Below are positions 23,041 to 57,108 of a DNA stretch of 64,000 nt, piece by piece. Source of the DNA: Polytrichum commune. Lineage: Eukaryota; Streptophyta; Polytrichopsida; Polytrichales; Polytrichaceae. The notes beneath the pieces are model-generated. The model had not been told where the DNA came from. It saw only the letters and a program-made list of their open reading frames with translations, and ran no database searches. The first letter of the stretch is position 1, and each line of letters starts with the position of its first letter. Position numbers and translations under genes: made by a program. The stretch covers positions 1,118,501-1,182,500 of the forward strand of contig OX485808.1 in NCBI GenBank assembly GCA_950295325.1. Direction: 5' to 3'.

Positions 23041-23044
23041 TTTT

Positions 23045-33917: not shown

Positions 33918-33953
33918 AGTTTTGCGGGACGCAAAAAGATAAGCGTGGGGCTA

Positions 33954-37976: not shown

Positions 37977-38313
37977 CCATAGAACACAACCCAAACAACA
38001 TTTTTTGGACTAGCTAGGAACCATGGACCAAGTTTTAAACAGTAGTTAAAATGGTTTTTTTGTGTTTAAATAGCTATTTTTTGTGTTCAAAAGAGCCATG
38101 AAATGTACTAGTGGTACTTGACCGTGCTTGCGCCCTCTATGTAGATCTAAATTTCCAAAAAAACATGTGGCCATTTTGCATATTTATTTTACACACAAGG
38201 AGTGGAGTTTACAAGAATATAAAATGGAGTTCCAATTGAGGATAAAGAGCAAGTGCAAAACATACCCCCTTTCCCTTGAGGTCCAAGACTAAACTAGCGG
38301 ATGATAGTGGAGA
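37977..38313. other. Segment of copy B missing from copy A
   Basis: The break in copy A falls at 9680. There is no gene, only AT-rich DNA leading into the SINE-like array. Its last 50 bp equal the 3' part of one array unit, so unequal exchange within the array could have removed it from A. Confidence 0.45.
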
Positions 38314-38850: not shown

Positions 38851-39669
38851 AACGTTCGGACAATAAGCTCTTGCAAGCTGTGTTGCAGATGGGGCATTTC
38901 TAACAAATCTGCAGTTGCTTTCTCAGCTTCTTGGTTACTCGTGGATACTAGGTCTGGATACTAGGTCTGAGCAAGGATGGGACAGAAATTCAAGTTACAG
39001 AAGCTGTTCCTTGCTGCAAAAAAATTAGGTTATCAGAACCTCTGATCTAATCATCACTACAATCTTCACCTTAGGAGTAATAATTACCTGGCCACTTGCA
39101 ACCACTTATTCGTCTGCAAAACATTGACAAATTTTATGATTTCTGTGCAGATATATATATTGACAGATTCAAAATATTCACAAATATCATACATCTGTAG
39201 TCAACATCAACACAGTACAAATTACTTCGGTGGCGCCAATGAACAAGTGATTATTCTAGGAATTTCTATCTAACTTCACTGAATATACCAATTAGTGAGT
39301 GTGGTACTAATTCAAGTCACACGCAGGATCAAGTCAAATCATAAACTTACTGAAAGCTGAAGTTGCGTAAAGGAATTCAGTATCACCTTCAATGATTTCC
39401 CACACTCACTAATTGGTATATTTAGTGTAGTTATTACTTCAACAGTTGCCATGCCAAGCTAAGCTAAACTGAGCTAACTAGAATCTGTTCTTACGATAGA
39501 CATGCCATAGAAACTCAGGGACATTCAAACAATTTGACCATACATATTAAACATCAGAGGTAAGTTAATCAAGTACTCCCGTCCTGCATCTGGAAGTCTC
39601 TAGAGAAATGTTACGTAACCAAAAGCCTTACAACTTTAAAAAGGCAAGCTGGGATGCAATATGAGGGTT

Positions 39670-40020
39670 TTATTTTGTTAGGTGAAAGAACTCTTGGAAT
39701 TTTAACAGAGACCTTCTTAACAGAGAACTTTTTGACGAAGCTCCGGGCAAACTTCGTGGTTTCTTTATGAAGTTGAGCTTCCCGTCCACACAACTAACTG
39801 TAATGACTTCAGAGTCTGCCAAGTCATCTGATGAAACTATCCATTGATCTGATGAAACTATCGATACAATGACATATTCTCGGTATTCGGCATTTGTATC
39901 AAATCTACAATTGAAAGAATCCCCATCACTTATTTCGGCTATTTGGGAATAAACTCCGCCAAGGCCTTCCTTCAGTGTGAGACGATAACCTGAATGATTA
40001 ACAATCCTTGTTGACAACAT
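39670..40020 (-). CDS. Small plant protein of unknown function, copy B (116 aa)
   Basis: Paralogue of 10835-11254. The same ATG is preferred because the acceptor-like TTTTCAG just upstream is conserved. The N-terminus (STRIVNHSGYRLTLKEG) and the C-terminus (SKSSLLRRSLLKFQEFFHLTK) closely match copy A. The middle differs more, with extra residues around IVSSDQWIVSSDD. The GASSN array is reduced to one GASSK. An open frame kept in both copies despite an internal length change suggests that both were or are translated. Function is unknown. Confidence 0.6.
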   Translation of the reverse strand: MLSTRIVNHSGYRLTLKEGLGGVYSQIAEISDGDSFNCRFDTNAEYREYVIVSIVSSDQWIVSSDDLADSEVITVSCVDGKLNFIKKPRSLPGASSKSSLLRRSLLKFQEFFHLTK

Positions 40021-41059
40021 TTTCCGCCACAGCCTGAAAACTGCAAATGAGCAAATAGATGAAAAAAACACTTTAAGATCGAGATGGATTAATCAATTCT
40101 GTTAGATACACTAGAACACAGACCCAATATAAACATTCCATTGGCATTCAGGACACAATAGCATTGGACGAGAAATATATCTGTACCTTAAAGGATCTTC
40201 CCACACATTCTGTTAAGCGCTCACAGGTACTTCCTTCTTTTCTAAGTGATGAATATTGGATGGAATGAGAGCTTCTGCATAATGTGTGCCTCATTCACAA
40301 GATTACATTAGCAAAGTTGTATGGATTTCATTTCTTCATATACCTCTTTCTCTGGTTTGTGATGTGCTTCAATTATTAACAAATCCTACAGCCTTAAGTT
40401 TCATGTGAGGTAAACATAGCACCTGCTAATCATAACTTGAAAGAAGTGTCATGGTGAAGAAAGGAACAAGACAGAGGGTCGATCGTAAGACGTTGCAAAT
40501 CTGGTGTATAAACTCAACACACTTTAAACTAATGTAACTATCTAGAGGATTAGTCTCTTGATTGAGGATAGGTCACATACATAGGAAGCAACCTTAACGT
40601 AGGAATACAAATCTAGGACATTCTATCGCAATCCTATCTTTATGCACTTTGATCAGCGGATAAGTAAAAACCACTCCTATTGCATGATAACAACAGATAT
40701 TGCAAAGACATCAGAAGAGCAGATCCTACATATATTACTTTCTAAATTCCTATCAAAGTGCGTGCATAACAACTCCTGCCATGAGTTTGCTTTATGGAAG
40801 GCCCTAGAAGTTATGGCATCTCGAAGTCATCCTTCAGTATCTGCCATCTAAAACTACAATTCTTTCATATTAAGGTAAGGAAGGAGTACTGGAATTGGTG
40901 TGTGTAGCCAAACCTTGCTTCTCTTCTTGCAAGTAGGGTGGTTGTGCAGAGCAACTTCTGGCTTTTGAGGAACCAAAGCCCTACGACTGCGTACTGTAAC
41001 AACCACAAAGAGATGGGTCTTGAGTGGAAGTTATGTAGTACACATCCTTACTTACCCCA
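40021..41059 (-). other. Probable intron of the small gene (copy B)
   Basis: Collinear with 11255-12299. Small indels only; no other gene recognised. Confidence 0.4.
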
Positions 41060-41330
41060 CCTTAAGTCTCTAAGATTGAAGGAGCTAACTCCGGCTCTCG
41101 GGTGTCGACTCTAATTCATCTTGACATGGCCTGAAGTTGACATCATCTTCCCCAAACCCCACAAACTTCAGCCTAATCAAAGCACGGTCGAGAGAGAGAG
41201 AAATCGAACTCTTCGGTAATTGACGCAAAATGCAACAGAATGATTTGCCCGATCTGGCGGTAGAACTCTTAGCACCCTCACCGCAAACAACAAGACGGAA
41301 TTTCAACTTACTGGAGAAAAGTCTGTGGCT
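41060..41330 (-). other. Putative 5' exon of the small gene (copy B)
   Basis: The open frame 41306-41085 matches 12547-12311 of copy A with few changes, and the flanking donor-like GT sites are kept. Confidence 0.3.
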
Positions 41331-41389
41331 GATTTAACCCCTCGAAACACAACCCCGCCTTCTCTTCCTTCCTCAGCTTCGTCGCCATC

Positions 41390-41630
41390 TTCAGCAGTTT
41401 TCGGTCGGGTCCAGAAAATCCAACGGGCGGCTGCCCCTGCCCGAATATTCCTTCCCCGAAAAGTTCGTCGGGGGGAACTTAATGTCCTCCCTTTGGCCAG
41501 GCATAGTGTGAAGTCTCCAAAGGCTAAGCCCAAAGTCCAATCCTTTGGCCATGAACGGCCTCTCGACTTGGATGGTCATAGTGTGAAGTCTCCAAAGGCC
41601 AAGCCTAAAGTCCAAACCCATACCATTTGT
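41390..41630. repeat. Foldback element remnant (outer right arm only)
   Basis: Joins directly to the position equivalent to 12632 of copy A, so about 1.4 kb containing the left arm and centre was removed. It keeps the two 39-bp direct repeats. Confidence 0.75.
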
Positions 41631-41839
41631 TAATACCTTCTACTTTCATAACGTATTCATAAGCATTTAAACTAATTAAGTGTGATTGAATGTAGTTAAG
41701 TCTAATTAATTATGAGTAATCCTAATTAAGCCCAAATTAATCATGCCTAATTAATGATAAATGTATTTATTGGATATATCATGACTATGATATTAAAATC
41801 GATATTATATTTAACGTAATAAAAGTTTAAATTTTTAAA

Positions 41840-42017
41840 TTTACGTCCATTTTAAGAATGACAAAGACCCTTTCAATTGTAAGTCACAAAAATTATAACC
41901 TCAATGCTAATGAGGATTTTGTAATATTTTTGACTTCCAAGTCAATTACATGCATTATTGGCGGTTTCACTTTGTTAATGAAATCCAAGTCAATTGCTTA
42001 CTTTCTCAATCGAAGTG

Positions 42018-42063
<46 letters not shown>

Positions 42064-42260
42064 TTGGACCTTGAAGATGAAGTGCACTCAATATGGGATT
42101 TGTGGATAAGTGGCCTTCAAGAATGCAAGGGAAATGGTTTTTTCAAAGTCGGGCTGGCATACAACAATTTTCGGTCAGGTCCAAATAATCTGGATTTCTT
42201 TCTATGTGGTTGCCCCTACCTAAATCTACCTCCCCAAAAAAGTTTGTGGGTGGGGTGTTT
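41840..42260 (+). repeat. Foldback-family dispersed repeat, copy B internal
   Basis: Shows the standard blocks AATGACAAAGACCC, CATTATTGGCGGTTTCACTTTG and GGCCTTCAAGAATGCAAGGG. An AT microsatellite (42020-42056) has expanded inside it. Confidence 0.75.
42020..42056. repeat. AT microsatellite
   Basis: An uninterrupted AT run, against only a short ATATATAT at the same position in the related repeats. Confidence 0.95.
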
Positions 42261-42804
42261 AATGTCCCCCGTAGAGACGGAGAAGGAGCATCCCACTTTA
42301 TTCTCTACCCAAAACAACCCCTCCAATCTAACGGCCAATATCTTGTCAAATTTTTAAAATTTTATTAAAAAAAATCGAAGACCTCTCAACAATAGTTTGG
42401 GTTTCCGTTCCTGTCCAACCCAAAGTTCCTTTGAGAATATGTCGCCTTGGTCAAAAAATACTATCGTGTATACATTTTGGAGAGCAATGGCCTTTGCACT
42501 TTGGCCCCTTGTGTGAAGGATCAAGAGGCCAAATTCTTAGTTTCTTGCAATTTGATTGGTGGAAATCGACGGCCTCTCGACCTTCGGCCATAGTGTGAAG
42601 TGACCCTAAGTTATAGGAACTTATCGCCACCCTCTTCACATTATTTGTGGTAAATATTTTGGGCCACACTACAAATGAAGAAATCAACACCAGAAATGTC
42701 GGGGATGTCATTGTGGATGCACATTATATTCCAACGGTCCACTATATACAACATCAGAGGTCTATAATGTAGGTTAACGTATTTATATGGAATGGAAATT
42801 AGTG
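42261..42804. other. Segment absent from copy A, with a foldback-type terminus
   Basis: Around 42540-42607 it reads CGGCCTCTCGACC...GGCCATAGTGTGAAGTGACCC, the outer-end motif of the foldback family. No coding sequence is recognised. Confidence 0.4.
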
Positions 42805-45039
42805 TGTGTTTGAGAGATTTCCAACACATCCTACTAAATTAGCGGTTTCGTACCTTACATTAGAATATTAAACATATTTTCAAAAATATACTTCAACAAA
42901 ACCATTTTTTGAAAAGGTTAACAATTAACTCTATCTTTTAAAAATAAGACTTCCAAAAAAATTTGGTACTTTACAAAACAACTTAGTTTCCATCAAAGCA
43001 ACATGCATAGGATGGGTACGTGGAGAGGTTAATGCCAAACTATTTCCCTCTAGTGTAAGGTTCTACACTATTTGATGTGTGATGGTGAATGTTGTGGACT
43101 ACACTATGGTGTATCAAACTTACTTTGAAGAATAAGTCACACTATTTTAAATATTCCCACAATATTTACCATAAATAGTGGACACATTCAATCAAAGTTG
43201 TCCACATTAATTAGCTCCACATGGATGGGAATGTTTAATGTACTTTATAACATCAATGAACGAACACAGAAAGTATTCCATGCAAATCTTCAAAGGTCTG
43301 CAGGAGGAGGAGGTCTTCTTCTAGGAACATAACTTAGAGTCAAGAGGCCAAGGACCAAAGGATGTTGTTCCTAAGAAATGTGGGTGTTCTTTAGTTCCAT
43401 TTTCATGTTTTCCAATTTCTACTAATCAGATTTACACAATCATAATTGTGTTGCATCAACAAATCTACGATGAAACATATGCAAAAACTAGTTTGAAAAT
43501 TGGATTTCCCCTTACTTAGTTACGGTTATTGAAAATGCACGTTTGTTGATTTATCAACCCGATACATAGGTCTTTCACCCTCTTCCAATTACACTCATGT
43601 TCAATTTTTTTTTTGCAATAAAGACAATAAGAGAATTCTCATGGAGCTGGAATCTTGCAAAGAAAGGAAGAAGTGGCAACAACAAACAATAAGCAGCTTG
43701 TTGGAAAAAAAAAGGGCAACCAATAAAAAAAAATGAACGAAGAAGATGAAAAAACCAACAATAAGGATGTGATTGAGGCTGGCAAATTTAATGAAAAAGA
43801 AGATGACATGGCAAAAATCAAATGGATAGATTTTGCAATGCATCGCTTAATTACTATTTAAGGCAAGATGGACAAGAATTTACAAAAAAACCACAAACAA
43901 GCAAGGTTATTATTATTACTATTATTATTATTATTATTTACAAAAGTGAGGATATATGTGATTATATGTTGGCAGTATGATGGGGTTGTAGAAGCCTTGG
44001 CCTTAGTCATAAGCTCCTTTTCCCTCCTCCCCCGAGAACCAAGTCGGCCGCTACAGCAAGGGCTTCACAATTTAGTTATTATATTTTATTGTTTTTGCGC
44101 AAGAGAGGGGTTTGAACCCATCTCTTTTATATTCAAAACCTTTCATCCTCCTCCTTCTTCTAACCACTAACCCATCTTACATTTTTCTCTCTACCTACTC
44201 AAATTACTCTTATTTACAACATGTTCTTAACTTCTATAATGCTGAATTGTTTTTATATTTACCAATCCCAACCTTTTTTTGGTTTTTCCTGCAAGTATTA
44301 ATTTTTGGATCAAACTACATATTTTATTCATGAAATTAATTAAAGGTTTCAACCATTCCTGGTTATCATCCAAAAAAAAAAAAAAAAACAAAAAAAAACT
44401 CAAAGAATACATGAATGACAAGTGGGCTAATGAGATTTCAAGAATTGATAGGAAACAAACATGTAGCTAGTTTCAAGAAATAAATAAATAAATGGCAACA
44501 AGACAAGTGTGCACAACCAAATTCCTGCTAGTGCTACAAAATCATGGGAAGAAGATGTTATTTCATCATTTGCTTCTTGCTATTTCATGTACGGTGAAAT
44601 TAAAGAGAATATTGAAATTCTACTAGAACAAGTTGTTGGTTATTATAGGGCTCTTCTTGCATTATTCCAAGAATCCATAAATTTGTTGAAGAATATGGAT
44701 AAAAACTTTACTACTCTCCTAGATAAATAATAGTTTTTTTTTGGTTATATTTGTTCCACTATCATTGTTTATTTTGGAGATGTTGGATTTATTTCATAGT
44801 TTATATTGCCACTAATTTTCGCCAAATAATTCATGCATTATTGTATCTTTATGGGGGAACAAGTCATTTGCCTTCTCATTTTTTTCTCAATAAAATAAAT
44901 CTACTTCTACGTCATCTACTTCTACGTCATCTACTTCTACGTCATTTATTTCTACGTCATCTGCAATTGAAACATCTTGCCTAGTTAAAATCATTATTTT
45001 CACTTTAGCAAGTCCAATTTTTTCTCCTTCGTACATTCT
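42805..45039. other. Flank of the PIF/Harbinger relic (copy B); no intact gene
   Basis: Collinear with 15640-17869. A 73-aa frame at 44509-44730 (ATKSWEEDVISSFASCYFMY, then KENIEILLEQVVGYYRALL) is helical-looking and could be part of a second Harbinger ORF; its copy A counterpart is broken. TTA repeats (43910-43938), an A-run (44371-44388) and a TCTACGTCA-type repeat (44901-44960) have expanded relative to copy A. Confidence 0.3.
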
Positions 45040-45900
45040 TCTAGCTAATTCATTTTTTGCTTCAACATTCTATTTATCTTAATCCCTTTGTTGTTTACAA
45101 TGCACCAATTGTACAATAATTTGCAAGTTGTTATAATATCGGGCTTGTTTCCCAAAGGTACTTAAGATTACTTCATTATTAGCCTCCATCTACCCTTAAA
45201 AATTTCAAACGTCTTTTCCACACACATTCTAGTTGAAGATTGAATAACATTATAATTTTCCTCTTTTCTCAATAATGTAGCATTACTACCTTCAAATAAA
45301 CAAAAACATCCAAGGCTTCACATAATATGCAACATCTCCTATAAGTTCATATGGTTGAAATTTATCTGCTAAGCATGCATATCCAATTCTTGGAACCTGA
45401 AAAACAACCCAATTGTGAAGACTTCTTAACCAACTAAACTCATAATCCTAGAATATATAGTATGGTTTGACAATTCCCTATATAATTACTGAATGAAAAA
45501 AGACTTTCTATGATAGTAGTTTTGTCTATCAATAATTGGAGCTAAAACATGAATATATGACTCATCTATTGCCCCTATGTTATAAGATATACCATCCAAC
45601 TGCTATAAGCCTAAATTGCGATTCACTTGGAGTTTGCACAAAAATTGGTTGAAGATGCTTCCTAACAACTCTACAATTTTTGACAATGTATTATTGTGTA
45701 CTCTATACAATACTCCTATGCTTCAATAGCAAAGATGATTTTTTCTGACAAATTCTCTTCTTGCCTATAGCCTATAGCCTATCCTAAACATAATAACATC
45801 TATATCTTATATAGAGAAGATAAGGTATCGTGGGTTGGTTTTAAATTTACAAAATTCATATCCATAGACCTTTGATAATATGATCCACCATATTGAATTG
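45040..45900 (-). pseudogene. PIF/Harbinger-type transposase relic (copy B)
   Basis: Same disrupted motifs as 17870-18860, but without the MITE-like insertion. Because the lesions are shared, the transposase was inactive before the duplication. Confidence 0.75.
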
Positions 45901-45950
45901 CTTAAGGTGTTTGACGGATGACCATGATGCAAATCATGAGATATAATATA

Positions 45951-46587
45951 CAGGTTAAACTCTTAAAATGGAATCAATCATATTGTATGTCATATCAATA
46001 TGCTTACACAATGTAAACCTAAATAATATATGATATGTGTATATTAAGTTATATCAACCATAGTTTACTCTGTTTTTGTTATATATACATATACATATAC
46101 ATATAATGTTAAAAATTGTTCGTGCAAATTATATAATTGAATAATTAAATTTCTATTTAGTTGTGACAATACATTATAGTGACTTGTCACATATCATACA
46201 TGTGAACACCTCTCTTTTCAAAAACAAATAGTTACATGGAATCCAATGCCGCATTTGGTCTTGGTGACAACTCATGAGAGGTTAGAATATAAGCCCAAAG
46301 TATCCAAAGCCACATCATGGCCCCTTCTCACTTTTTCCCCATGTACAAAATAGCAAATTCTTCACAATAGCTAGGAGGGGACAAAGGTGTCTTACATGCC
46401 AACTTGAAGGTGCTTAGCGAAATTAAATTCCCTCCAAGCCTCTGGATGGACTCGTAATAAATGACTTTACTTGAGTGCCACAATAACCCAACCTAATTGC
46501 ACATAAAAATATCGGCTAGGGTCTTTCTTAGTGTAAAAATCTTATGAAAGGTCCTTGTGGAGGTTTGCATGTTCAATATACTTGCAC
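45951..46587. other. AT-rich spacer, no gene seen
   Basis: Begins at the right end of duplication copy B. It contains a short ATACAT run near 46085. No coding or RNA feature is recognised. Confidence 0.5.
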
Positions 46588-46591
46588 AAAA

Positions 46592-46617
46592 TATAGATAG
46601 ATAGATAGATAGATAGA
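46592..46617. repeat. TAGA/TATC microsatellite, probable LINE 3' tail
   Basis: On the minus strand the 3' UTR ends in repeated CTAT. Several non-LTR groups end in short tandem repeats rather than poly(A). There is no poly(A) at this end. Confidence 0.6.
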
Positions 46618-46844
46618 AACTCCGGTCCCTTTTAGGGGCCGGCGTGAATAGAGTGTCCGTTCGTAATGCCAACAACCCGATGCCCACAGGACATGGGGAA
46701 GCTGGGACAAAACTACTCTCCTCTTTCGAGGATGGACACTATAGTAACCGAGAAACAAATAATGTGGGCCGATCATGGCCCACGGCGGTGCATGCCTTTT
46801 AGGTATAATTAGTGTTTTTGTTATGAGAGTGAACGCCAAGTCAT

Positions 46845-46991
46845 GATTCCTCGGTTGGTTGTGGGAGGATGTTTGAGTTAAGACGTTCCGGGTTCGATTT
46901 CAGTCGAGTCCGTATGATCGTCTAAAATGTAACGCGTGACTTGGTGTTGCAAGTGAGTAAAAGGCAGGAAATTTGTACCAACCAACCGGCA
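46845..46991 (+). repeat. tRNA-like/SINE-like block with inverted repeat in the LINE 3' region
   Basis: On the plus strand CTCGGTTGGTTGTGGG (A-box-like, 46850) is followed about 40 bp later by CCGGGTTCGATTTC (B-box-like, 46889-46901), the layout of a tRNA-derived SINE head. It lies antisense within what should be the LINE 3' UTR. CGGTTGGTTG at 46852 also pairs with CAACCAACCG near 46979, so the block could fold. Whether it is an inserted SINE or part of the LINE end is undecided. Confidence 0.45.
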
Positions 46992-47049
46992 CCAATCCCT
47001 CATTCTGAGCTGTAAATAGATACTAAATATTATATAAGCTTTTTGGGTT

Positions 47050-50000
47050 TTATGGAGGGTCTAAGTTTTGGGGGAGCGGTTGGTGGTTTTCAATTCTCCT
47101 CTTATGGAGGAGGATGGACATGGCATATTGTATTGCAATGGTATTAATGTTTTTAAAGGTATTTTTGATGGTAACCAGGGGTATTTTGAGATTTTCTTCT
47201 AGTATTTTCATAGATGGGATGTGGGCCATAGCTCGGGCCCCAGCTGTGATGACAATAAGTGGTTCGATTTTCCATCCTTTGGAAGCGATACTATCAATCA
47301 AAGGTTTGTATTTGTTGTTTTTTGCTTCTATTGTTTCTGGGGAAAATCTGTCGTTACAATATGTGAATTCAATAAATTGTATGGTGAGGTTAGGGTCAAT
47401 GTCAATGGGAGGGTCATTTTGATATGGTAATCCTTTAACGCAGAGTATATCAGGTCGAAATCTTGCGTTGCAATGACATCTTTGTGTGTTACATGTGCAG
47501 GGGAGTAGCCAATTGGGGACTGTATTTTCTTGGGGGTTATTATTGAAGGTACCGGCATTCATGAGAGTAAAACATCGGGATTTTTCGGACGAGATTAGAA
47601 GCTTTCTAATTTCTCCGACTGCTTTGTTATGTCTTTTAATTCGTAGTGAGTGTAAATGTTGTTGGTTGCATTTCAGTAGAACATGTAGCCAAGTGTCTGG
47701 ATCGTTTGAATTGCATATAGGGCATGTGATAGAGGGGTACCTCTGGTGACCGAAGAACATTTGTTTTCTAGCATTACCCATGTATGTTCCTGTGCGGAAT
47801 TTAATAAGGCAGGATTTTTGTTTGTCTGTGATTAAGGGATTTGTCCAGAATTCGTTGGACAGTTCTTTGTCAATGTCTATATTTTCTGTCCATTTACACG
47901 TGTTGGGGGTTTGTGTGGCCATGATTGCTATATTGGTTTCCCTATCATATTTTTTAATTTGTTTTTCTAAGAATCTTACTGGGCCTTTGTCTGGGACGTC
48001 TGCCATCGAGGCCCAGACGTCCTTTTGGTAATAATACGGGATGGCGTGGGCATGTTCGTATGGGTGGATGGCAATTCTGTGTTCTAATTCTAACCCGTCT
48101 TTTGCTAGTTTATCCGCTTTTTCATTACCGTCAATGTTGACGTGTGCTCTGACTTTGTATAGTGTGATTGGCTGTGTACGGTCTTGGAGGATTTTTACCA
48201 TGGAGTTGAGTGTGGTTTGGTCGGGGTGACTATTATGGAGAGTGGGGTGTTTAATTTGTGTGTTGAGTAGGTATAATACGTTTAGACTGTTTGTGAATAT
48301 GAATGCGGGTTCATTAGGGAATTTTGTATTGATGATTCTTAGTGTTTTGTGTATAGCCATCATTTCTGCACGTAGTATGTTTTGATGCCCATGGAGTCTT
48401 TTGGCGATATTTAAGCCTTTGGGGCTATAGATACCGTATCCAGTTCTTTCTCTTCTCCATACCCCAGGGGCAATTTCTTTGGGTTTTATAAAGGATCCGT
48501 CTGTGTAGTAGCTAAATTGGGGGTAGAATTTTAGCGGTAAGTTAGTTTGGTAGTTTGGAAGTTGTGGGGTAGGGGTATTATTGTGTGGGATTGTATTTGG
48601 GTAGTTTGATTTGGCCCATTTTTTACTAGGGTTAACGGTGATGTTTGGAGGGGTGGGTGGTGCAGTTTGTGTGTGACTTTGTAGTATTTGGAGGTTATTT
48701 GCTGTGTCGTTTATTAATTTCATTTGTTCGTAGGTGCCTATGTTATTATTTTGGTGATGGATACAAAATATTTGAATGGTAGATGGTTCTTTTCTTGTGA
48801 TATTGAGCTCGGGGGGTATTGTGGGTTCCTCATACGTGATCGTATCAGCGGCGAAATGGGCAATGACGTGTGTGTCTGGGAATGGGCCTGTGTGTGGGTT
48901 GGAGTTTTGGTACCAATTAGTATCCGGAGATATAAGTATAGTGATTGTATATGGATCATTTTGGGCCGCTATGCGCGCCCAGTGAATAGCTTGTTGTAGG
49001 TCTGTTGTATTATGAGGGTGTGCGTAACCGATTCCTTGCCATTTATGGTCAAACGCTTTACCTAGGGATCCAAATATTATGTCTCGCGAGAATGGTGAGT
49101 AGAATTGGGTGAATTGTGTGAGACATGTAACTGGGGATGAAAAATATGAGTGGTTAATATTGAATGTTGTAATCAGGAGATCTAATATTTGGGTTGGTAT
49201 TGTATATTGGGCTCGTTTGAGTGGGTCATTTTTTGGGATACGGTATTTGTACCTTTGGTATAACCAAACAATTTCAGTTTCGAACGATTGGGTAGATGGT
49301 TCTAGACCGTGTGTGTTGTTTTTTGCCAATTGGTATTGTTTCCATAGCCATGTTAGTCTAGCTTTCGGGATGGTAATGAGGTGTCGGCCATTGTCTTCGT
49401 ATATGTGAGCGACATCGAATTGTGTTTGGATGGTATCAGAGTTTGTTTCGATGTCGTTTTCTGGGTTGCATTCATTATTAGAGATATGTGCTAGTGGAAT
49501 TATTGTGGTTGGTGTGACGTATCTTGTGTCTCTATGTTGTTTTGTGGAGAAGTAGGCATTAATTATGTTTGAAAAATGTTTGTGTTGTCTTTCTTTGTAG
49601 TAATGGATAAGTAGGTCTGTGTTGTGATTATATGTGTTGGCTTCACAGTAGGGGTATAGGTCCCTTTGAGTTCGCCATTTGTTATATGTGTTGTTATTTG
49701 TTGTAGTCCATTGACATAAGTACGACGTGACTGCTTTTTTTATTCCGTTATGGTCATTGGATTGTTTTTGTTTATGATCGATTATTTTGTGTATGGGGAA
49801 TTGTCGGGGGTCTTTAAGCATGATGTTGGGAGGAGGGGGTAGAGGGGGGATGGGGAGGTTAGGGGGGTGTACGGGGGCGGTTGGTGGGTGTGGTAGGATA
49901 TTGTGGTGTCTTATTATATATTTATTTTTTAGGGATCTTGGTGGATGGTGTTGTTGGCATGGTAGGGGGCATTGATTACAAGGGGGGTAGCAAAATAATT

Positions 50001-51597
50001 GATTAGCTATGTTAAGTGCGCTTTTGATAAGTTTAGAAAGAGTGGAGGGGTAGATTTTGAATTCGTCCGGATTCATTAGAGTGGTACCATTAGGCATGGT
50101 AATTTGGTCTAGTGTGATTATATTATGTACAAGTAGTTTGTGTAGTAATTTAAGTGAGGTGTTGGGATTTAGGCCATGAAGCATTTGTGCTTCCTGCGTC
50201 CATGCGGTTTCAAGTGGGGATGGGGTTAGTAGGAAATTGTTTATTGTACTTTTTAGGTGGACTCCGGCTTTATGTTTGAGCAAGAATAATGTTATAGTGA
50301 TGGGTGATCTAACACAGTGGTGGTATTTAATGCGGGTGATTTCCTTAGAGCCACCATATTTGGCGAGTATGAATTGAAGTAGACCAACATATATTTTCCC
50401 AATTCTACCTTTATCATTGAGGGCGTTTTGTAGTTGTTCTCCAATGCATCTTAAATAGGCATTTTGTAGTGAGAATGCTTCGATTCCGAATAGATTGTGT
50501 GAGAGTTGTGTAGCGATGTTAGATGTGCATTTGGGTATTCCGCATATCGTTTTGTGAAGTGCTATGATTTTTTTATCGAGTTTTTTGATAGCTGGTATGG
50601 AGTATGGCACTGCGTAGAAGCTGTATGCTATTCCAGCACGTATGACTGTATCTGCCATGTTTATTTTTTGTTTCATAGTAGCTGGGCATGTTACAAGGGT
50701 TTGACACTGTTTTATTACTTTAGCTGTAGTGGTATTTATTTGTGTTTTCCATTTGAATGATGGTGCAAGATTTATTCCTAGATACGTGTATGGTTCATGT
50801 TGGTTTAAGACTGGTATAGGTTGGTTTCTGTAGTTGATATTGGTAGATTGGATTAGGGCTTTGAAGGTTGTAGGGTGAAGTTTGGATTTGTTTGGGCATC
50901 CAGTTATTGCGCACTTGGGTATTCCAAGATCCATTCCTGCCCATTCGCAGAATTTGTCTAGTTTGTTGAGTTGTGTTTGTAGTGTCTCTAGTTTATTGGC
51001 TATTGCTGCTAGGTCATCTGCATATGCTGCTGATGAAATTTTAATTTTAGATGTACCAAAAGTGTATCCATTATTCCCTTGTTGTAGCCATCTGAGGAGG
51101 GGTTCTAGGAATATAATAAATAGATATGGGCTAAAGGTATCACCTTGTATTGTACCTCTTTGAATAGGGATTGGTAAGGTTTTACCGAAGTGTTCACATG
51201 TGAATATTGTTGAGGATTGTGAATATATGTTTCCTATGAGATTTATGGAGTCAGTGAGATATCCCAGATCTTTCATTATGGCTAAAAGTCTGGCGTGATC
51301 AATGGAGCCGAAGGCATTTTTGAAGTCAATGTAAAGGATATATATATCTTGGTTCGTGAGTCTTGCGTCTTCAAGCGCTGTGATTAATAATTGGATTTGT
51401 CTAGAAGTGCTTCTCTCTGCTCTAAACCCTTCTTGACTATCGTGTAATATTTGGTATTTTTCTCCATATGCTGATAGGATAGAAGTTAATGTACTCGTGT
51501 AGAATTTATATATGGTGTTAGCTAGTGCAATAGGTCTATGGTTTGTTAGTTGTGATGGGTTACCTTTTTTGTATAGTAAAACTGTTAGACTGGTTTT
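47050..51597 (-). CDS. LINE ORF2, main part: RT core, MTase-like region, RNase H, finger, restriction-like endonuclease
   Basis: The frame is continuous with 51598-53760 except for the TGA between them; the first in-frame ATG is at 51276, and residue numbers count from it. Before that ATG lies RT motif A (YIDFKNAFGSIDH). RT continues with GTIQGDTFSPYLF and catalytic YADD at 85-88. Residues about 705-840 resemble PCIF1-type adenine methyltransferases: FSSPV at 712, FGSLG near 735, and AHPH at 752-755 where the family has NPPF. RNase H has YTDGS (Asp 926), RAEM (Glu 971), FTNS (Asn 996 instead of Asp) and GNEKADKLA (Asp 1055). CPIC...H...C near 1180 is a CCHC-like finger. RFRPDIL (Asp 1276), FIEFT (Glu 1303) and KNNKYKPL near 1317 form a PD-(D/E)xK restriction-like endonuclease, as in R2 and Dualen. 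The stretch about 190-700 is unassigned. Confidence 0.85.
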   Translation of the reverse strand, partial: KTSLTVLLYKKGNPSQLTNHRPIALANTIYKFYTSTLTSILSAYGEKYQILHDSQEGFRAERSTSRQIQLLITALEDARLTNQDIYILYIDFKNAFGSIDHARLLAIMKDLGYLTDSINLIGNIYSQSSTIFTCEHFGKTLPIPIQRGTIQGDTFSPYLFIIFLEPLLRWLQQGNNGYTFGTSKIKISSAAYADDLAAIANKLETLQTQLNKLDKFCEWAGMDLGIPKCAITGCPNKSKLHPTTFKALIQSTNINYRNQPIPVLNQHEPYTYLGINLAPSFKWKTQINTTTAKVIKQCQTLVTCPATMKQKINMADTVIRAGIAYSFYAVPYSIPAIKKLDKKIIALHKTICGIPKCTSNIATQLSHNLFGIEAFSLQNAYLRCIGEQLQNALNDKGRIGKIYVGLLQFILAKYGGSKEITRIKYHHCVRSPITITLFLLKHKAGVHLKSTINNFLLTPSPLETAWTQEAQMLHGLNPNTSLKLLHKLLVHNIITLDQITMPNGTTLMNPDEFKIYPSTLSKLIKSALNIANQLFCYPPCNQCPLPCQQHHPPRSLKNKYIIRHHNILPHPPTAPVHPPNLPIPPLPPPPNIMLKDPRQFPIHKIIDHKQKQSNDHNGIKKAVTSYLCQWTTTNNNTYNKWRTQRDLYPYCEANTYNHNTDLLIHYYKERQHKHFSNIINAYFSTKQHRDTRYVTPTTIIPLAHISNNECNPENDIETNSDTIQTQFDVAHIYEDNGRHLITIPKARLTWLWKQYQLAKNNTHGLEPSTQSFETEIVWLYQRYKYRIPKNDPLKRAQYTIPTQILDLLITTFNINHSYFSSPVTCLTQFTQFYSPFSRDIIFGSLGKAFDHKWQGIGYAHPHNTTDLQQAIHWARIAAQNDPYTITILISPDTNWYQNSNPHTGPFPDTHVIAHFAADTITYEEPTIPPELNITRKEPSTIQIFCIHHQNNNIGTYEQMKLINDTANNLQILQSHTQTAPPTPPNITVNPSKKWAKSNYPNTIPHNNTPTPQLPNYQTNLPLKFYPQFSYYTDGSFIKPKEIAPGVWRRERTGYGIYSPKGLNIAKRLHGHQNILRAEMMAIHKTLRIINTKFPNEPAFIFTNSLNVLYLLNTQIKHPTLHNSHPDQTTLNSMVKILQDRTQPITLYKVRAHVNIDGNEKADKLAKDGLELEHRIAIHPYEHAHAIPYYYQKDVWASMADVPDKGPVRFLEKQIKKYDRETNIAIMATQTPNTCKWTENIDIDKELSNEFWTNPLITDKQKSCLIKFRTGTYMGNARKQMFFGHQRYPSITCPICNSNDPDTWLHVLLKCNQQHLHSLRIKRHNKAVGEIRKLLISSEKSRCFTLMNAGTFNNNPQENTVPNWLLPCTCNTQRCHCNARFRPDILCVKGLPYQNDPPIDIDPNLTIQFIEFTYCNDRFSPETIEAKNNKYKPLIDSIASKGWKIEPLIVITAGARAMAHIPSMKILEENLKIPLVTIKNTFKNINTIAIQYAMSILLHKRRIENHQPLPQNLDPP

Positions 51598-53760
51598 TCA
51601 TGATGCAGGGATTTGTTTTTGTTTATAGCAATGTTTAAAAAATAAGAAGAGTAATTTATGGAAGCGTGGAGGCATGTTTTTTAGAATTGAATTGGGTATT
51701 TTGTCTGGGCCCGGGGCTTTGTTATTATTTAGGTTTTTAAGACAAAAGTCGTATGTTTCTTGGTCAAAATACGTGTGTAAGGGGGTTTGGGGTTCTCCTC
51801 GTTTGTCAATGATGTATCCGTCTAAGTCATGCCATGGATATTGCCGGACTCCATATGTGCAGTGTAGTGGGTGTGTATTTTGATATTGGCATGTGGGAAC
51901 TGTAGGACGGTTACTGATGGATTGTTGCGTGTATATTTCTGCTGCGATGTCTTCTGGGTTAGTTAATATATTGTTTTGTCTATCAATGATGGAGTCCAGA
52001 GGTGAGGTTTCAGTGTTCTTGAAGACTTTTCGATTTATCTTTTTGGGGTTTTTTTCATACATTTGACGGTATTTTGATATGGCCTTTAGAATGCAGTCTT
52101 TGGTGTATTTTGTGGTGATTTTCCTGGCTTGTTTATTTGCATTTTTTGCGATGGTTGCTATGGCATCAATCCATTCAGTAGGAGGTGCCGTTTGAACAGG
52201 TGGGTGTGGGATGTTTGTGTGTTGGTGGTTTCGTATATCGTTTAGGATGGGGTGTGCTTGCCAGAGTGGATCGTGTAGTGCAATGTATATGGTTTTCCTG
52301 ATGAGGTGATATGTGTTGAGGTGTCTTTTCCATTTTCTCGCAAGTTTGCGTGGCAAAAACCCACCTTGTTGTGATGTTCTGTTCGTAAGGTTGGGTAGTG
52401 GATCTGCTTTACAGGTTTCTTCAATTGTTTCTGATATTTTGTATACAATGTGGTCGAATGTTGTACAGGCTTCCTCCCATTGATCCGGGCTTAAGTGTTG
52501 GTGGTTTTCGAGTAGGGTGTTAAGGGCTTTTATTTGTGCAGAGTTTTCTTCGAAGAATGTTATGTTGAATTTTTCGATGTTTTCTGGTAGTATTGGGTTT
52601 AGTATTCTAGTTGGTGACGTGTTTGTGGGGGGTGGGGATCTGGCTATAAGGGTGTTGTGGGGGATATGTAGTACAACTGGATAATGGTCTGAGTTTAGAT
52701 TCATGTTAGTGTTTGTGGTAGAAATGAATTTGCTGTTGTCTGGTGAGTGAATGTAGAATCCATCTATTAGACTTGTTGATGTGTAATTATAGCCTCCTTG
52801 TCTGGAGATGCTAGTGTTAGTTGGGATATATTCTAGGTTGAGTGATGCGGTGAAAATTTTCCATTGGTAATCTTCTTCTTGTGGAGGGGTGTTAATGTTG
52901 TTATTTTGTCTGCCTGTAAGTGCGATATCTCGGTTAAAGTCCCCACATAATGTATACATGTAATTGGGGTGTATAGTGATTTCGTTAGTGATTTCGTTCT
53001 TAAGGTGTGGAATGAGGCATGTGTCTTCTAAGTGTGTAGGCATGTACATGTGTATGATTAGCCAAGGTATTAGTGGATGGTTGTTTATTTTAATTATTTG
53101 TATGTATGGGGATATATTTACTGGCGTGAGAATTTTGGTGATATTCCCAGGGAATGCATATTTCTTGTGGATAAGTGTGAGTAAGCCTCCTCTTCCGGGG
53201 GTATAAGGCATTCTTTGTTGTATGCATCTTGTGAGTGCATGTGTGTTGTTGAAAATGAGTTTAAATTCCGGAAATAGGTTTTGTATGTATTTTGTAAATT
53301 TATTTGCAGTTAGTTTGGTTTCTTGGATATGTATGATTGCTGTGTTGTTTAGCGAGTTGTTTATTAGGCTTTGTAGGTTTGGTAATGATGTGTTGAGTGA
53401 TGACGCATTCCATGTTATTATGTTTGTTTCGTGCTCGGTGTCGGTGTTAATTCTTGGGGTTGGTGTGGGAGTAGCTGGGGGTGGGGGTGGGTGTGAATAT
53501 TCGTTGATGCTTTCTAGGCATCGGAGTGCTTCAGTGATCAATTGATTTGGGAGGAAGGGAAATTTATTTTGAAGGGTAATTGGTGTTGGTGTATTATCTT
53601 GGTTGTGGATAAATTCATATATCTCTCTGTGTATTGAATTTTTGGGTATATTATATCTTGATTGTTTTCTACAAAAGTTGTGTAGGGGTGAGGTGTTGAT
53701 ATATGCCTTTCGGGGGGGTTGGTGAGGTTGGCCAGGCTGATAATCAATGTGTTCGTCCAT
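51598..53760 (-). CDS. LINE ORF2, N-terminal part: AP-endonuclease and start of RT
   Basis: A 720-codon frame from ATG 53760 to TGA 51598-51600. The endonuclease motifs are complete: ITWNASSL at 115-122, QETKL at 146-150, YMPT at 239-242, GDFN at 273-276, LIDGFYI at 331-337 and NSDHYP at 356-361. These are the metal-binding and catalytic positions of the exonuclease/endonuclease/phosphatase fold used for target-primed reverse transcription. The RT begins near 690 (APGPDKIPN). The TGA falls at IPAS*KTSLTVLLYKKG, a position normally occupied by Trp, so it reads as TGG to TGA. Translation upstream of the ATG meets a TAA two codons earlier, while the leader sequence continues in another frame, so a frameshift probably separates them. 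Confidence 0.88.
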   Translation of the reverse strand: MDEHIDYQPGQPHQPPRKAYINTSPLHNFCRKQSRYNIPKNSIHREIYEFIHNQDNTPTPITLQNKFPFLPNQLITEALRCLESINEYSHPPPPPATPTPTPRINTDTEHETNIITWNASSLNTSLPNLQSLINNSLNNTAIIHIQETKLTANKFTKYIQNLFPEFKLIFNNTHALTRCIQQRMPYTPGRGGLLTLIHKKYAFPGNITKILTPVNISPYIQIIKINNHPLIPWLIIHMYMPTHLEDTCLIPHLKNEITNEITIHPNYMYTLCGDFNRDIALTGRQNNNINTPPQEEDYQWKIFTASLNLEYIPTNTSISRQGGYNYTSTSLIDGFYIHSPDNSKFISTTNTNMNLNSDHYPVVLHIPHNTLIARSPPPTNTSPTRILNPILPENIEKFNITFFEENSAQIKALNTLLENHQHLSPDQWEEACTTFDHIVYKISETIEETCKADPLPNLTNRTSQQGGFLPRKLARKWKRHLNTYHLIRKTIYIALHDPLWQAHPILNDIRNHQHTNIPHPPVQTAPPTEWIDAIATIAKNANKQARKITTKYTKDCILKAISKYRQMYEKNPKKINRKVFKNTETSPLDSIIDRQNNILTNPEDIAAEIYTQQSISNRPTVPTCQYQNTHPLHCTYGVRQYPWHDLDGYIIDKRGEPQTPLHTYFDQETYDFCLKNLNNNKAPGPDKIPNSILKNMPPRFHKLLFLFFKHCYKQKQIPAS

Positions 53761-53995
53761 ATGTTATTAAAGTGGTAATTTTGGGGTTGGGCTAGTATGT
53801 TATTGCATGTGTCTATTGAGGGGTGGATGGTGATGATTAGAGCGTATAGCATATGGGTTAGTGGTGATTGCCTTTGTGTTAGGATATATTGATGTAGATG
53901 CGGGTAGGTGGTTATTGCTTGAGGGTGTAGTGGGTGTGTGTTTTTTAGTATGGGGGCAAATGTGTTTGCTATGTGTTGGTATTCAGGTTGTAGTT
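53761..53995 (-). other. LINE joining region between leader ORF and endonuclease frame
   Basis: No single frame is open from the leader ORF through to the endonuclease. A third frame is open across this whole stretch (QPEYQHIANTFAP, then LTQRQSPLTHMLYALI) down to 53538. The simplest reading is one ancestral frame with a shift near 54015 and another near 53760. Programmed frameshifting is an untested alternative. Confidence 0.5.
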
Positions 53996-54787
53996 TTATA
54001 GTGTTTGGAATGAAGTAGATGTTGGCTCTTTTTTGTGTGTAGCAGGGTGTGTATGTAGGATGTTAGGCATTGGTCCGGGATTGGGTTCTATGTCCCCGCA
54101 TTTTAGCAATTCTAGTTTGTTAATAAAGTAGTATCCGTGGGAATGAAGTGTTTTTGGATTTTTCATGTTTGTTTTTAGATATATTATGATTGTGAACTTG
54201 GTTGTAGTAAAGAGGTTAGGTATAGCGGGTATGATGTTTTCTATTTGTTTGGGTGAGAAGTGTGAGTTTGTATTTTTTATAGATTTTTGGCTTGTTATTG
54301 AGTTAGGTCTCCAGTTATTTATGAAGTGGTATGTGTTATTATTTGTGTGGCGAGGCCGGTAGGCCGAGGCCATTGTATCTTTTGGGTGAGGTTGGTATTT
54401 TGGATGAGGGTTTAATAGGTGTTTGAAATAGGGTTTGTGATGGTGTTTGATGTTGAGGTGAGGTTTATTTAAGGTGAGTAGTTTATATTTACTTTTTGTG
54501 AATAGATTAGGTAAGGTGATTATTGTATTTTTTGTAGTTTTTGGGAGGTAGTATATAGGTTTAGTATGTTGGTGGGTAGGCTCTGTGATTGTGTTAATGA
54601 TGGGGTTGAGGGAGTGGTAGTGTATATATCTTGTTAGTTTTATTTTGTGGCGAGGCCGGTAGGCCGAGGCCGTATTGTGTACTTTGTTGTATTGGATAGG
54701 ATATTGTTGTATTGTGAGTAAATAGATTTGTTTTTGTGAGTTGTTGGGGGGGTTTTCTTTGTGAATTTTTGATGTTATAGTATTCAT
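53996..54787 (-). CDS. LINE leader ORF with two 100-residue repeats and a 2A-like peptide
   Basis: A 263-residue frame from ATG 54787. It contains two diverged repeats in register 300 bp apart. Each opens with ASAYRPRH and later has a PNLFT motif followed by K(Y/F) and a Y-F-x3-L block. The second repeat runs into LLKCGDIEPNPGP, a 2A-like ribosome-skipping sequence, after which PMPNI starts the next product. The frame ends 25 codons later in a stop, where a frameshift to the downstream frame seems to have occurred. The protein is rich in N, H, K, P and T. I recognise no domain. Its product may be released from ORF2 by the 2A step. Confidence 0.7.
   Translation of the reverse strand: MNTITSKIHKENPPNNSQKQIYLLTIQQYPIQYNKVHNTASAYRPRHKIKLTRYIHYHSLNPIINTITEPTHQHTKPIYYLPKTTKNTIITLPNLFTKSKYKLLTLNKPHLNIKHHHKPYFKHLLNPHPKYQPHPKDTMASAYRPRHTNNNTYHFINNWRPNSITSQKSIKNTNSHFSPKQIENIIPAIPNLFTTTKFTIIIYLKTNMKNPKTLHSHGYYFINKLELLKCGDIEPNPGPMPNILHTHPATHKKEPTSTSFQTL
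54071..54118 (-). promoter_or_regulatory. 2A-like ribosome-skipping sequence
   Basis: Encodes LELLKCGDIEPNPGP. The D-x-E-x-N-P-G-P core is complete, preceded by the usual Leu-rich Leu-Leu-Lys-Cys segment. Separation would fall between Gly and Pro (54074/54073). Similar sequences sit at the N-terminus of several non-LTR retrotransposons (trypanosome L1Tc, animal L2/CR1). Confidence 0.85.
54346..54671. repeat. Perfect 26-bp GC-rich direct repeat, copies exactly 300 bp apart
   Basis: Copies at 54346-54371 and 54646-54671 share TGTGGCGAGGCCGGTAGGCC and the next six bases without a mismatch. They stand out from very AT-rich, G-poor (coding strand) surroundings. They encode ASAYRPRH at the start of each leader repeat. 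The rest of the 300-bp units is strongly diverged. Confidence 0.9.
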
Positions 54788-54909: not shown

Positions 54910-57108
54910 TTAGTTTGTCAAGTCCATATTGTTTTCAATTTCCGATATGTCCGGATGAGCCGCTTCGATAGCATCCAAGGTAATCTTCATTTGCCTTTGA
55001 AGGAGTTGTATTTGGAACTTGGAATTCTTGTTTGACTCCGCTTGCACATGGTCGGCATAAACTTTTGCCTCTTGCACAATCTCATCTTTAAGGTTCACCA
55101 TTTCCTTTCGTATTTCATCCGTCCCTTTTTTTACCGCTGCTTCTACCATCTTGTTGAGATCTTTGTTGGTGATGTTTTGGTGCGGTCCATTCTCCAGAGC
55201 TTGGATGGTGTTTGCAAGTGCGGTGTTCACGTCTGAAAATCCAAGTCTAACTAGCTCTTCTTTACTAGGTGCATTTATCCCATCTAGACTTTTTGGATGG
55301 GGGGTAAATTCAACATATTTACCAAATATTTTTTCATTTTTCTTAACAAATTTCTTGTAGACAAACGAGTTGAGGCATTGGACATTGCATGAGCCCGTAT
55401 GCTTCCCGTTCTCAAGTCTAAAGTAAAAACCGAGAACATTTAGTTCTCCCATGCATTTTCGGATTCCTTCTTCGATTTGCATGGTTGTTTTTACCTTATT
55501 GAGGTTACGGGCAATTAGAATGAGTGCATTCTTTCGGGCTTTATCATCTTCTGAGAGTTTTTCGTTACTTGCAAAGTTTACATCTACTATTTCATTGAAA
55601 AACGAAAGTTTGAGTGCTTTAATTCTTTTGGCTTCCTCTGGAGAGGGTGCTTTAATCCAAGCAAACTTTGCATCCGCCGATTTTTGCACATTCGTTATTT
55701 CAAAGTCAAGGCCTCGTTGAAATCCATCCCCAACTATTTCTACAAACAAATCATACCATTCTTTACCCTTGATTGACGGGGTTGTGACTTTGACGGAGAG
55801 CATGGATGCAATTGCAATGGTATCAAAGGATTTACACACTTTGCCTATAGCATGTGTAAATCGTCCAAGCTTGAGGATGAAAGGTCTCAATCCACAGAGA
55901 AGGCCATATCCATCCATTTCAGGGTTTTTAAGGTGGAGTTTAATAATTCCACTCCATCTTTTGGTCCCATGAAAACAAAGGACAGCTATGGGCTCTCCTA
56001 AGACTTCCCCGACCTCTATCTTCATTGTTTTTAGTCTATCATTTGTTAAGTTGAGTATCATATCTCTATCCAATTTTATTCTTTCAATTTCAAAATGGAT
56101 AGATATGTGATAGTCCAAAGCAAATCCATGGTCACCCACTTCCACATCTGAAGGAATCTGGGTGAGATTGTAGTGCATTCCCTCCTTACCATCCGTTCGT
56201 ATAGAAGGCCACTCTTCTTGGGCAACGAACGGAAAGGAGGGAGATGACTCCACCATTTCATGTGCTTCAGACTCACACATACCTTTTTTGACTAACTCAG
56301 TGAAAGAAGGTGTTTGAATGAGAGGCATGTTGGCAAATTTTGCAATTGTGTTCATAGCTTGAAAACCAAGCCAATAGGGGGGGCGTGTTCTCTCAGTGGA
56401 TGCTATTCCTTTAACCTTTTTTTGACTTGACAATACCACATCAAGCACTGGACGTTTTCCACTTGTAGAATCTATATTTTCATTTTCAAACAACTTACGG
56501 GATGATGAGGTTGGAGTGATGGTTGCCATTCTGATATAAGCAAAGCAAACAAACGTTTTGTACTTTAGTTTTGAATGAGGTATACTTCTTATTTTCTTTC
56601 CTCTAATTCCTTTCCACAAATTAAGTTGTGGGCCTCCTAGGAATTGAGAGTGAAAGAAGAAATGATTTGCATGTTCTAACATCATATGAGTACTAGTATG
56701 AGTACAACTTGCATTCATCCTATAACACCTTTTCCTATTCATATGAATCTTCATATTAGTATTTACAAATTGGTTGTAAGTGCTCTTATGTAGATTATGA
56801 TTTGTCACAACTCTAACATTCCATACATCTCCTAAGCATTTGAGGCAAGTATAACTAAAAGCACAAGCATCTACCGTTACTACCACGGATCCATTATTTC
56901 TAATGGAGCATTCATTTATGATATGAACATTAAGGTTGTTATACCATACCTTTGGATTTATGACGTTCTTATATGTGTTTTTAAAGCAAGAGTTTGTAAG
57001 GCATTCCCATGTGGTGTGAGAGTTGACACTATGAGAGTATATCCAGTATGGTGTGGCTAGTACTAGCCACATAATGATAACAAGGTAGGTTGCATATGCA
57101 ACCTTCAT
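54910..57108 (-). CDS. ORF1-like protein with signal-peptide-like N-terminus, possible RRM-like region and coiled coil (732 aa)
   Basis: Open for 732 codons from ATG 57108. Residues 1-25 (MKVAYATYLVIIMWLVLATP...) look like a signal peptide. Residues 26-190 contain nine Cys and N-glycosylation-type sites. A second ATG at 56529 (Met194, MATITPTSSSRKLFE) starts a cytosolic-looking protein of 539 residues and may be the real start. That part has two regions that could be RRM-like, including ALILIARNLNKV and GKYVEFTPHPKSLDG, and a charged helical C-terminus (residues about 640-715) that could form a coiled coil. This plan fits LINE ORF1 RNA-binding proteins. Its stop lies 123 bp before the LINE leader ORF on the same strand. 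Codon and base use are balanced, unlike the G-poor LINE, so it may be a separate gene or an older element. Confidence 0.65.
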   Translation of the reverse strand: MKVAYATYLVIIMWLVLATPYWIYSHSVNSHTTWECLTNSCFKNTYKNVINPKVWYNNLNVHIINECSIRNNGSVVVTVDACAFSYTCLKCLGDVWNVRVVTNHNLHKSTYNQFVNTNMKIHMNRKRCYRMNASCTHTSTHMMLEHANHFFFHSQFLGGPQLNLWKGIRGKKIRSIPHSKLKYKTFVCFAYIRMATITPTSSSRKLFENENIDSTSGKRPVLDVVLSSQKKVKGIASTERTRPPYWLGFQAMNTIAKFANMPLIQTPSFTELVKKGMCESEAHEMVESSPSFPFVAQEEWPSIRTDGKEGMHYNLTQIPSDVEVGDHGFALDYHISIHFEIERIKLDRDMILNLTNDRLKTMKIEVGEVLGEPIAVLCFHGTKRWSGIIKLHLKNPEMDGYGLLCGLRPFILKLGRFTHAIGKVCKSFDTIAIASMLSVKVTTPSIKGKEWYDLFVEIVGDGFQRGLDFEITNVQKSADAKFAWIKAPSPEEAKRIKALKLSFFNEIVDVNFASNEKLSEDDKARKNALILIARNLNKVKTTMQIEEGIRKCMGELNVLGFYFRLENGKHTGSCNVQCLNSFVYKKFVKKNEKIFGKYVEFTPHPKSLDGINAPSKEELVRLGFSDVNTALANTIQALENGPHQNITNKDLNKMVEAAVKKGTDEIRKEMVNLKDEIVQEAKVYADHVQAESNKNSKFQIQLLQRQMKITLDAIEAAHPDISEIENNMDLTN

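What the first reader, a model, noticed from the sequence alone, without database searches (positions are those of the whole stretch)
47050..53760. A LINE with both an AP-type and a restriction-like endonuclease, plus RNase H, in apparent land-plant DNA
Seen: complete AP-endonuclease motifs (WNASSL, QETKL, YMPT, GDFN, SDH), RT with YADD, RNase H, a CCHC-like finger, and a C-terminal RPD...E...K..KY endonuclease, all in one frame of more than 2200 codons. Known: elements normally use one endonuclease or the other; carrying both defines the Dualen/RandI group, described from green algae such as Chlamydomonas. Inferred: the neighbouring transposons are plant-type, so this extends the group, or shows a transfer, into a land-plant-like genome. 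The element is nearly intact, hence fairly young.
Basis: partly seen in the sequence, partly recalled or inferred. Interest (0 to 1): 0.92.

Follow-up and report, generated by a model that had tools for sequence, protein, structure and literature searches.

The report
Two-nuclease LINE with PCIF1-like domain
A damaged copy of a rare kind of jumping gene, which carries two different DNA-cutting enzymes, sits in plant-type DNA, and its protein also holds a domain related to the enzyme that marks the capped ends of messenger RNA, a part not described for such elements in the papers we could search.

Summary

This copy is not intact: two frameshifts, one stop, one RNase H Asp-to-Asn change. Plant-type DNA is suggested by an adjoining LTR retrotransposon; the species is unknown and its genome could not be searched. 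New variant of a known kind.

The parts
54343..54671 (-). Two copies, 300 bases apart start to start, of a GC-rich 29-base motif; the downstream copy adjoins the likely ORF2 start codon (ATG at 54373, MASAYRPRH)
   Evidence: 97% identical copies; P0030 begins with MASAYRPRH
54098..54373 (-). Leader peptide upstream of the 2A-like motif (frame -1); 101 codons from the ATG through NPGP
   Evidence: tblastn of P0030; translation
54071..54097 (-). 2A-like (StopGo) motif GDIEPNPGP; P0030 has the same nine residues
53645..54047 (-). Unassigned N-terminal region of ORF2, frame -3; frameshifts near both ends relative to P0030 (ends approximate)
52636..53424 (-). AP-type endonuclease domain (WN, QET, GDFN, SDH motifs)
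   Evidence: Exo_endo_phos_2, 21.6 bits, below its cut-off of 27.4; L1 endonuclease 2v0r, 5.9e-6
50746..51768 (-). Reverse transcriptase (YADD)
   Evidence: RVT_1 2.2e-28; R2 9nl3 1.4e-24
51598..51600 (-). In-frame TGA stop codon inside the RT; P0003-P0006 and P0030, which cover this place, are open here
49579..49809 (-). Possible chromodomain (weak)
   Evidence: Pfam Chromo 0.055, 13.8 bits against a cut-off of 25.1; model shows three strands then helices, block pLDDT 69-77; no PDB sequence match
48691..49440 (-). PCIF1-like methyltransferase-fold domain
49009..49020 (-). HPHN, at the place of the PCIF1 catalytic NPPF motif
48091..48513 (-). RNase H domain; Asn at the third catalytic position (codon 48291-48289)
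47053..47826 (-). C-terminal module: CCHC-like finger (about 47724-47668) and R2-type restriction-like endonuclease (RPD with D at 47451)
46593..47049 (-). 3' untranslated region ending in a (TATC)n tail of about six units (46617-46593), taken as the 3' end

Best explanation
It is a degraded copy of a Dualen/RandI-type non-LTR retrotransposon. Shown: the coding anatomy, in order leader, 2A-like motif, unassigned region, AP endonuclease, RT, PCIF1-like domain, RNase H, CCHC finger, R2-type endonuclease, then a simple-repeat tail. Inferred mechanism: an intact sister copy is transcribed and capped; translation starts at the ATG corresponding to 54373, and ribosome skipping at the 2A-like motif releases a leader of about 90 to 100 residues from the replicase. 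The replicase binds the 3' end of its RNA, one of the two nucleases nicks the target, and RT copies the RNA from the nick (target-primed reverse transcription); the second nuclease and RNase H help to make the second strand. The PCIF1-like domain, most likely taken from a cap-methyltransferase relative before this clade diversified, is in this lineage probably a non-catalytic RNA-binding module, for instance a reader of the capped 5' end that favours full-length templates; in relatives with NPEY it may still methylate. The classification is strong; the role of the PCIF1-like domain is a guess (about 0.3).
Against: No named Dualen sequence was in the tree, and some R2, APE-type and L1-like rows have long branches. 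In this copy RNase H lacks one catalytic Asp, and the position two after the nuclease Glu is Thr in the window, P0001 and P0002, where 14 of 25 rows have Lys. NPPF is found in 0 of 26 rows, so methylation or cap binding is undemonstrated. The window sequence by itself matches PCIF1 in the PDB only at 0.55, and model mc749016b1acb has a mean pLDDT of 59.3. A cysteine protease, recalled as part of Dualen, was not found. The 5' end is not defined, no convincing target-site duplication was seen, and no further copies in the host genome could be read.
Confidence: 0.85

Rival explanations
1. The PCIF1-like domain is an active N6-adenine methyltransferase, used to mark the element's own RNA or cDNA and so to evade host sensing or stabilise the RNA.
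For: Nine of 26 rows keep the Asn and an aromatic residue of the catalytic motif as NPEY; in alignment A2 (9 sequences) F..SP of the active-site loop and D..FG are invariant; the closest solved fold is a cap-specific adenosine methyltransferase.
Against: 0 of 26 rows have NPPF; the three rows of the window lineage have lost both the Asn and the aromatic residue, and the window reads SPVTC where PCIF1 has SPLNC. PMC10544176 says that NPPF mutants (APPA, SPPG) are used as inactive PCIF1 (passage seen).
Confidence: 0.2
2. The element is an algal contaminant or an assembly join, not a resident of plant-type DNA.
Against: Close relatives (57-94% identical, P0001-P0006) form their own branch at 100/100 where they could be placed, apart from the other rows of the clade. 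The window holds a gypsy-type LTR retrotransposon (21149-35836) with a primer-binding site of a kind I recall from plant Athila elements. Neither excludes a join.
Confidence: 0.12
3. Two elements are nested: an APE-type LINE and an R2-type element joined by chance in this window.
For: Each nuclease alone is typical of a different group of LINEs.
Against: One frame runs through these domains, and P0009, an uninterrupted 2450-residue protein, has Exo_endo_phos, RVT_1, PCIF1_WW and RNase_H by Pfam and an RPD...E C terminus aligned with the window.
Confidence: 0.02

Closest known systems
Dualen / RandI group of non-LTR retrotransposons
   Same: AP-type plus restriction-like endonuclease around one RT, RNase H, non-A simple-repeat 3' tail
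   Different: Plant-type DNA instead of green alga; 2A-like motif; PCIF1-like domain, which the passages on Dualen that I could read do not mention; no cysteine protease found (recalled from the 2005 description)
R2 elements
   Different: R2 has no AP nuclease and no RNase H (recalled); the three R2 rows form a separate branch in the tree
L1 / I-type elements
   Same: AP nuclease upstream of RT; RNase H in many of the APE-type rows found
   Different: By eye no R2-type nuclease in the last 520 residues of the six such rows that I printed (P0031-P0035, P0038); separate in the RT tree
PCIF1 (CAPAM), cap-specific adenosine N6-methyltransferase
   Same: Methyltransferase-domain fold, SP of the active-site loop, D..FG motif
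   Different: Embedded in a retrotransposon protein; no NPPF; Pfam reported no separate WW domain in the window pieces
Retrotransposons with methyltransferases (DNMT in Symbiodinium and Klebsormidium; Dam-like in DIRS), PMC5890265, passages seen
   Same: A methyltransferase-type domain carried by a retrotransposon
   Different: Those are cytosine or Dam-like enzymes, in LINE ORF1, DIRS or Gypsy elements; this one is PCIF1-like, between RT and RNase H of a LINE

Membership tests
Dualen/RandI | AP-type endonuclease upstream of RT | tested here: met
   (L1 endonuclease structures, best 5.9e-6); motifs; Pfam on the window alone below cut-off
Dualen/RandI | R2-type restriction-like endonuclease at the C terminus | tested here: met
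Dualen/RandI | RNase H domain | tested here: met
   (3.8e-11); this copy has one catalytic Asp changed
Dualen/RandI | RT groups with named Dualen/RandI elements | tested here: inconclusive
   28-row clade 100/99, but no named Dualen, plant L1 or RTE row was available
Dualen/RandI | Cysteine protease domain (recalled from the abstract of the 2005 description; the passages seen in PMC3636483 and PMC4640811 define the group by its two nucleases) | tested here: inconclusive
   No cysteine protease family listed for the window pieces scanned at E up to 1; for the 23 members only 25 of 34 families were shown; the N-terminal region stays unassigned
PCIF1 methyltransferases | PCIF1 methyltransferase-domain fold | tested here: met
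PCIF1 methyltransferases | Catalytic NPPF motif | tested here: not met
   0 of 26 rows; window HPHN
PCIF1 methyltransferases | Cap-dependent adenosine N6 methylation | not testable with these tools
   needs a biochemical assay
R2 | RT within the R2 branch and no AP nuclease | tested here: not met
2A/StopGo sequences | Core motif (D/G/C/N)(V/I)ExNPGP (PMC12846837, abstract seen) | tested here: met
   GDIEPNPGP in window and P0030; skipping activity not tested
Chromodomain | Chromo profile above its cut-off | tested here: not met
   13.8 bits against 25.1

The most novel reading that the evidence does not exclude
Dualen-group retrotransposons took in a cap-methyltransferase relative of PCIF1 early in their history and use it as a cap sensor, active or not, so that only full-length capped RNA is reverse transcribed; one branch of this group, with natural 2A ribosome skipping, lives in land plants.
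Probability: 0.15. Interest if true: 0.85.

Novelty: new variant of a known kind. Interest (0 to 1): 0.64.

Why it matters
Elements with two nucleases bear on how LINEs moved from restriction-like to AP-type endonucleases. A conserved PCIF1-like domain between RT and RNase H would be a new kind of capture and would link RNA-cap recognition to retrotransposition, which can be tested with a purified domain. It would also widen a group listed as green-algal only in 2015 (PMC4438587, Table 3, passage seen) and give a natural 2A case in plant-type DNA, where PMC12846837 found almost no StopGo motifs in plant viruses (passages seen).

Tried and rejected
Upstream ORF 57108..54910 as ORF1 of this element: set aside, not excluded. 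It has an ordinary base make-up next to the strongly A/C-rich element and belongs to a much more numerous family (96 hits, a lower bound since only 7998 candidates were scored, against seven close ORF2 relatives); no longest-contig length is shared between the two hit lists, a crude comparison. TSD search: one 13-base near-match, judged chance. Host naming through a DUF7748 ORF: three unnamed hits only. Related loci in viral contigs: alignment A1 was unusable; queries from the window, P0023, P0009, P0010 and alignment A6 gave no confirmed relative; prokaryote genomes with A6: none confirmed; each scan used only a few short peptide patterns. NPEY as ancestral state: parsimony undecided, 3 changes over 24 rows. 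Chromodomain: weak; the fold lists of the model show no chromodomain, which excludes nothing. No Rfam family at gathering threshold and no tRNA. On whether a PCIF1-like domain in LINEs is in print: full-text searches of the open-licence library only. (PCIF1 with retrotransposon and other terms; PCIF1 with non-LTR) held 2 and 1 papers, of which I saw listing and abstract start; one search held 5,595 papers and I saw 20. For Dualen/RandI: 14 papers; 178, 40 listed; 6; 545, 15 listed; 6. Subscription papers and Repbase were not searched.
Full report
The observation. On the minus strand a single frame runs from 53763 to 47050 (2237 codons before the final stop) with one in-frame TGA at 51600-51598. 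Profile searches support the four classical domains: RVT_1 2.2e-28 and RNase_H 3.8e-11; a four-sequence AP-nuclease profile against L1 endonuclease structures, best 5.9e-6, while Pfam on the window alone scored Exo_endo_phos_2 at 21.6 bits, below its cut-off of 27.4; a ten-sequence C-terminal profile against R2 proteins, 3.7e-7 for the whole sequence with weaker single stretches.

The family. A protein search gave 53 hits. P0001-P0006 and P0030 are close relatives (57-94% over the best local alignment; P0030 90% over only 6% of the query). P0007-P0029 are 29-38% identical. Of 23 members scanned (the window from 51597 on, P0001, P0002 and 20 of the 23 proteins P0007-P0029), RVT_1 matched 21, RNase_H 21, PCIF1_WW 15, PHD 7, Exo_endo_phos 6, Exo_endo_phos_2 4, Chromo 2 and a C5 methylase 1, at E up to 1. 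Many sequences are fragments: of the 31 aligned rows, 14 have more than 300 residues before RT, and 13 of these show GD.N and/or SD(H) motifs in a rough scan, P0017 not; 26 rows reach the C-terminal nuclease, with the RPD aspartate in 26 of 26 and the next Glu in 25 of 25. P0009, 2450 residues without a stop, holds Exo_endo_phos 2e-13, RVT_1, PCIF1_WW and RNase_H and the aligned RPD...E, so the combination is not a chance join in the window.

The catalytic motif. In 26 of 31 aligned rows there are letters at the PCIF1 NPPF place; the five without are P0003-P0006 and P0030. None has NPPF; nine have NPEY (P0007, P0009, P0016, P0017, P0020, P0023, P0026, P0027, P0029); the window, P0001 and P0002 have HPHN, HPNN and HPHS; the rest vary. 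A review says that NPPF-to-APPA or SPPG mutants serve as inactive PCIF1 and that the helical domain binds the m7G cap (PMC10544176, passages seen). I therefore expect no methylation in the window lineage and leave it open in the NPEY rows. Whether NPEY is ancestral is undecided by parsimony.

RT tree. Of 57 sequences offered (53 hits, the window, three R2 segments), two had no RT match (P0001, P0036) and two were too short (P0002, P0030); 53 rows were used. The window and 27 family rows (P0003-P0029) form one side of a branch at 100/99; the window and P0003-P0006 are together at 100/100; R2 is apart at 100/98; 19 APE-type rows are apart at 100/98; three rows P0031-P0033 sit on a long branch next to R2 with low support (69/30). 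P0031, the only one of the three tested, is closest to L1 in the PDB. The tree is midpoint-rooted, six rows have long end branches, and three have an odd amino-acid make-up. There was no named Dualen, plant L1 or RTE row. Papers define the group by its two nucleases (PMC3636483, passage; PMC4640811, passages), report it from Chlamydomonas and relatives (PMC8226300, passages) and cryptophytes (PMC12747079, passage), and one lists it as found only in green algae in 2015 (PMC4438587, passage).

The 5' part and the 2A-like motif. P0030, a relative that is open there, begins MASAYRPRH and has GDIEPNPGP at residues 82-90. Its matches to the window lie in three frames (54373-54029; 54047 to about 53645; 53718 onward), so the window copy has two frameshifts. 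The same nine residues stand at 54097-54071, 101 codons from the ATG to the end of NPGP. The core motif fits the published one (PMC12846837, abstract and passages); an N-terminal 2A-like sequence of a sea urchin protein was shown to work in plant cells (PMC4981915, passages). A GC-rich 29-base motif is repeated 300 bases apart by the start codon. The 5' end lies somewhere between about 54690 and 54900, judged from base composition only.

The 3' end. After the stop come about 430 bases and a (TATC)n tail at 46617-46593. RandI families of green algae end in non-A repeats such as (ATT)n and (CTATTT)n (PMC3747384 tables, seen). I found no convincing target-site duplication.

State of the copy. Besides the frameshifts and the stop, one RNase H catalytic Asp is Asn. 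The RT is 97% identical to P0003 over 338 columns, so the copy is probably fairly young but not intact; relatives open across its broken places exist in the protein collection.

Host. An LTR retrotransposon occupies 21149-35836, with 1892-base LTRs 99.9% identical, gypsy-type gag and pol domains and, next to the 5' LTR, TGGCGCCGCTGCCGGGGA, which I recall as the tRNA-Asp type of primer-binding site of plant Athila elements. This suggests plant-type DNA. No tool named the organism; the genome search tool was busy at all eight tries.

Mechanism. Target-primed reverse transcription is inferred from the R2- and L1-like parts. The division of labour between the two nucleases, the effect of the 2A-like motif and the role of the PCIF1-like domain are inferred and untested. 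My best guess for the last is a cap- or RNA-end-binding module; the rival is an active methyltransferase in the NPEY branch.

Novelty. The element is a new variant of the Dualen/RandI kind. In the open-licence library only one paper holds both PCIF1 and non-LTR, on host m6A and human LINE-1 (PMC8324889, listing and abstract start seen), and the Dualen/RandI searches showed me no land-plant report (of which 17 and 61 were seen only in part). Subscription papers and Repbase were out of reach, so this may be known there.

Noticed in passing
window 54910-57108, minus strand: A 732-codon ORF without Pfam match that belongs to a numerous unnamed protein family (at least 96 hits, up to 98% identical); its N-terminal third varies among the nine hits printed, apart from short motifs such as GPQLNLW.
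   Followed up: partly
window 47053-54373, minus strand: Strong strand bias of the element: 39% A, 28% C, 21% T but only 11% G on the coding strand, ending near 54900.
   Followed up: no
window 21149-35836: Young gypsy-type LTR retrotransposon with 99.9% identical 1892-base LTRs and an extra 970-codon ORF without Pfam match after pol.
   Followed up: partly
window about 7546-18915 and 35837-45951: Duplicated blocks, roughly 92-96% identical in the main pieces, on either side of the LTR retrotransposon, with further internal and inverted repeats.
   Followed up: no
window 62420-63865, minus strand: hAT-type transposase fragment (Dimer_Tnp_hAT 3.2e-7).
   Followed up: no
window 10835-11326, minus strand: ORF with DUF7748 (7.6e-24); only three unnamed homologues found.
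   Followed up: partly
proteins P0007-P0029: Several relatives carry a PHD-type finger (Pfam in 7 of 23 members; a rough pattern in 13 of 29 proteins) between two halves of what looks like a chromo-like stretch (Y.VQW.P ... V.W.P.WE); P0029 also carries a C5 cytosine methylase domain.
   Followed up: partly
BFVD A0A1V0SFI2 and A0A2P0VNQ5: PCIF1-named proteins of Hokovirus and of Tetraselmis virus 1 (by its name a green-alga virus) are the best viral fold matches, so a giant-virus source of the domain is conceivable.
   Followed up: no
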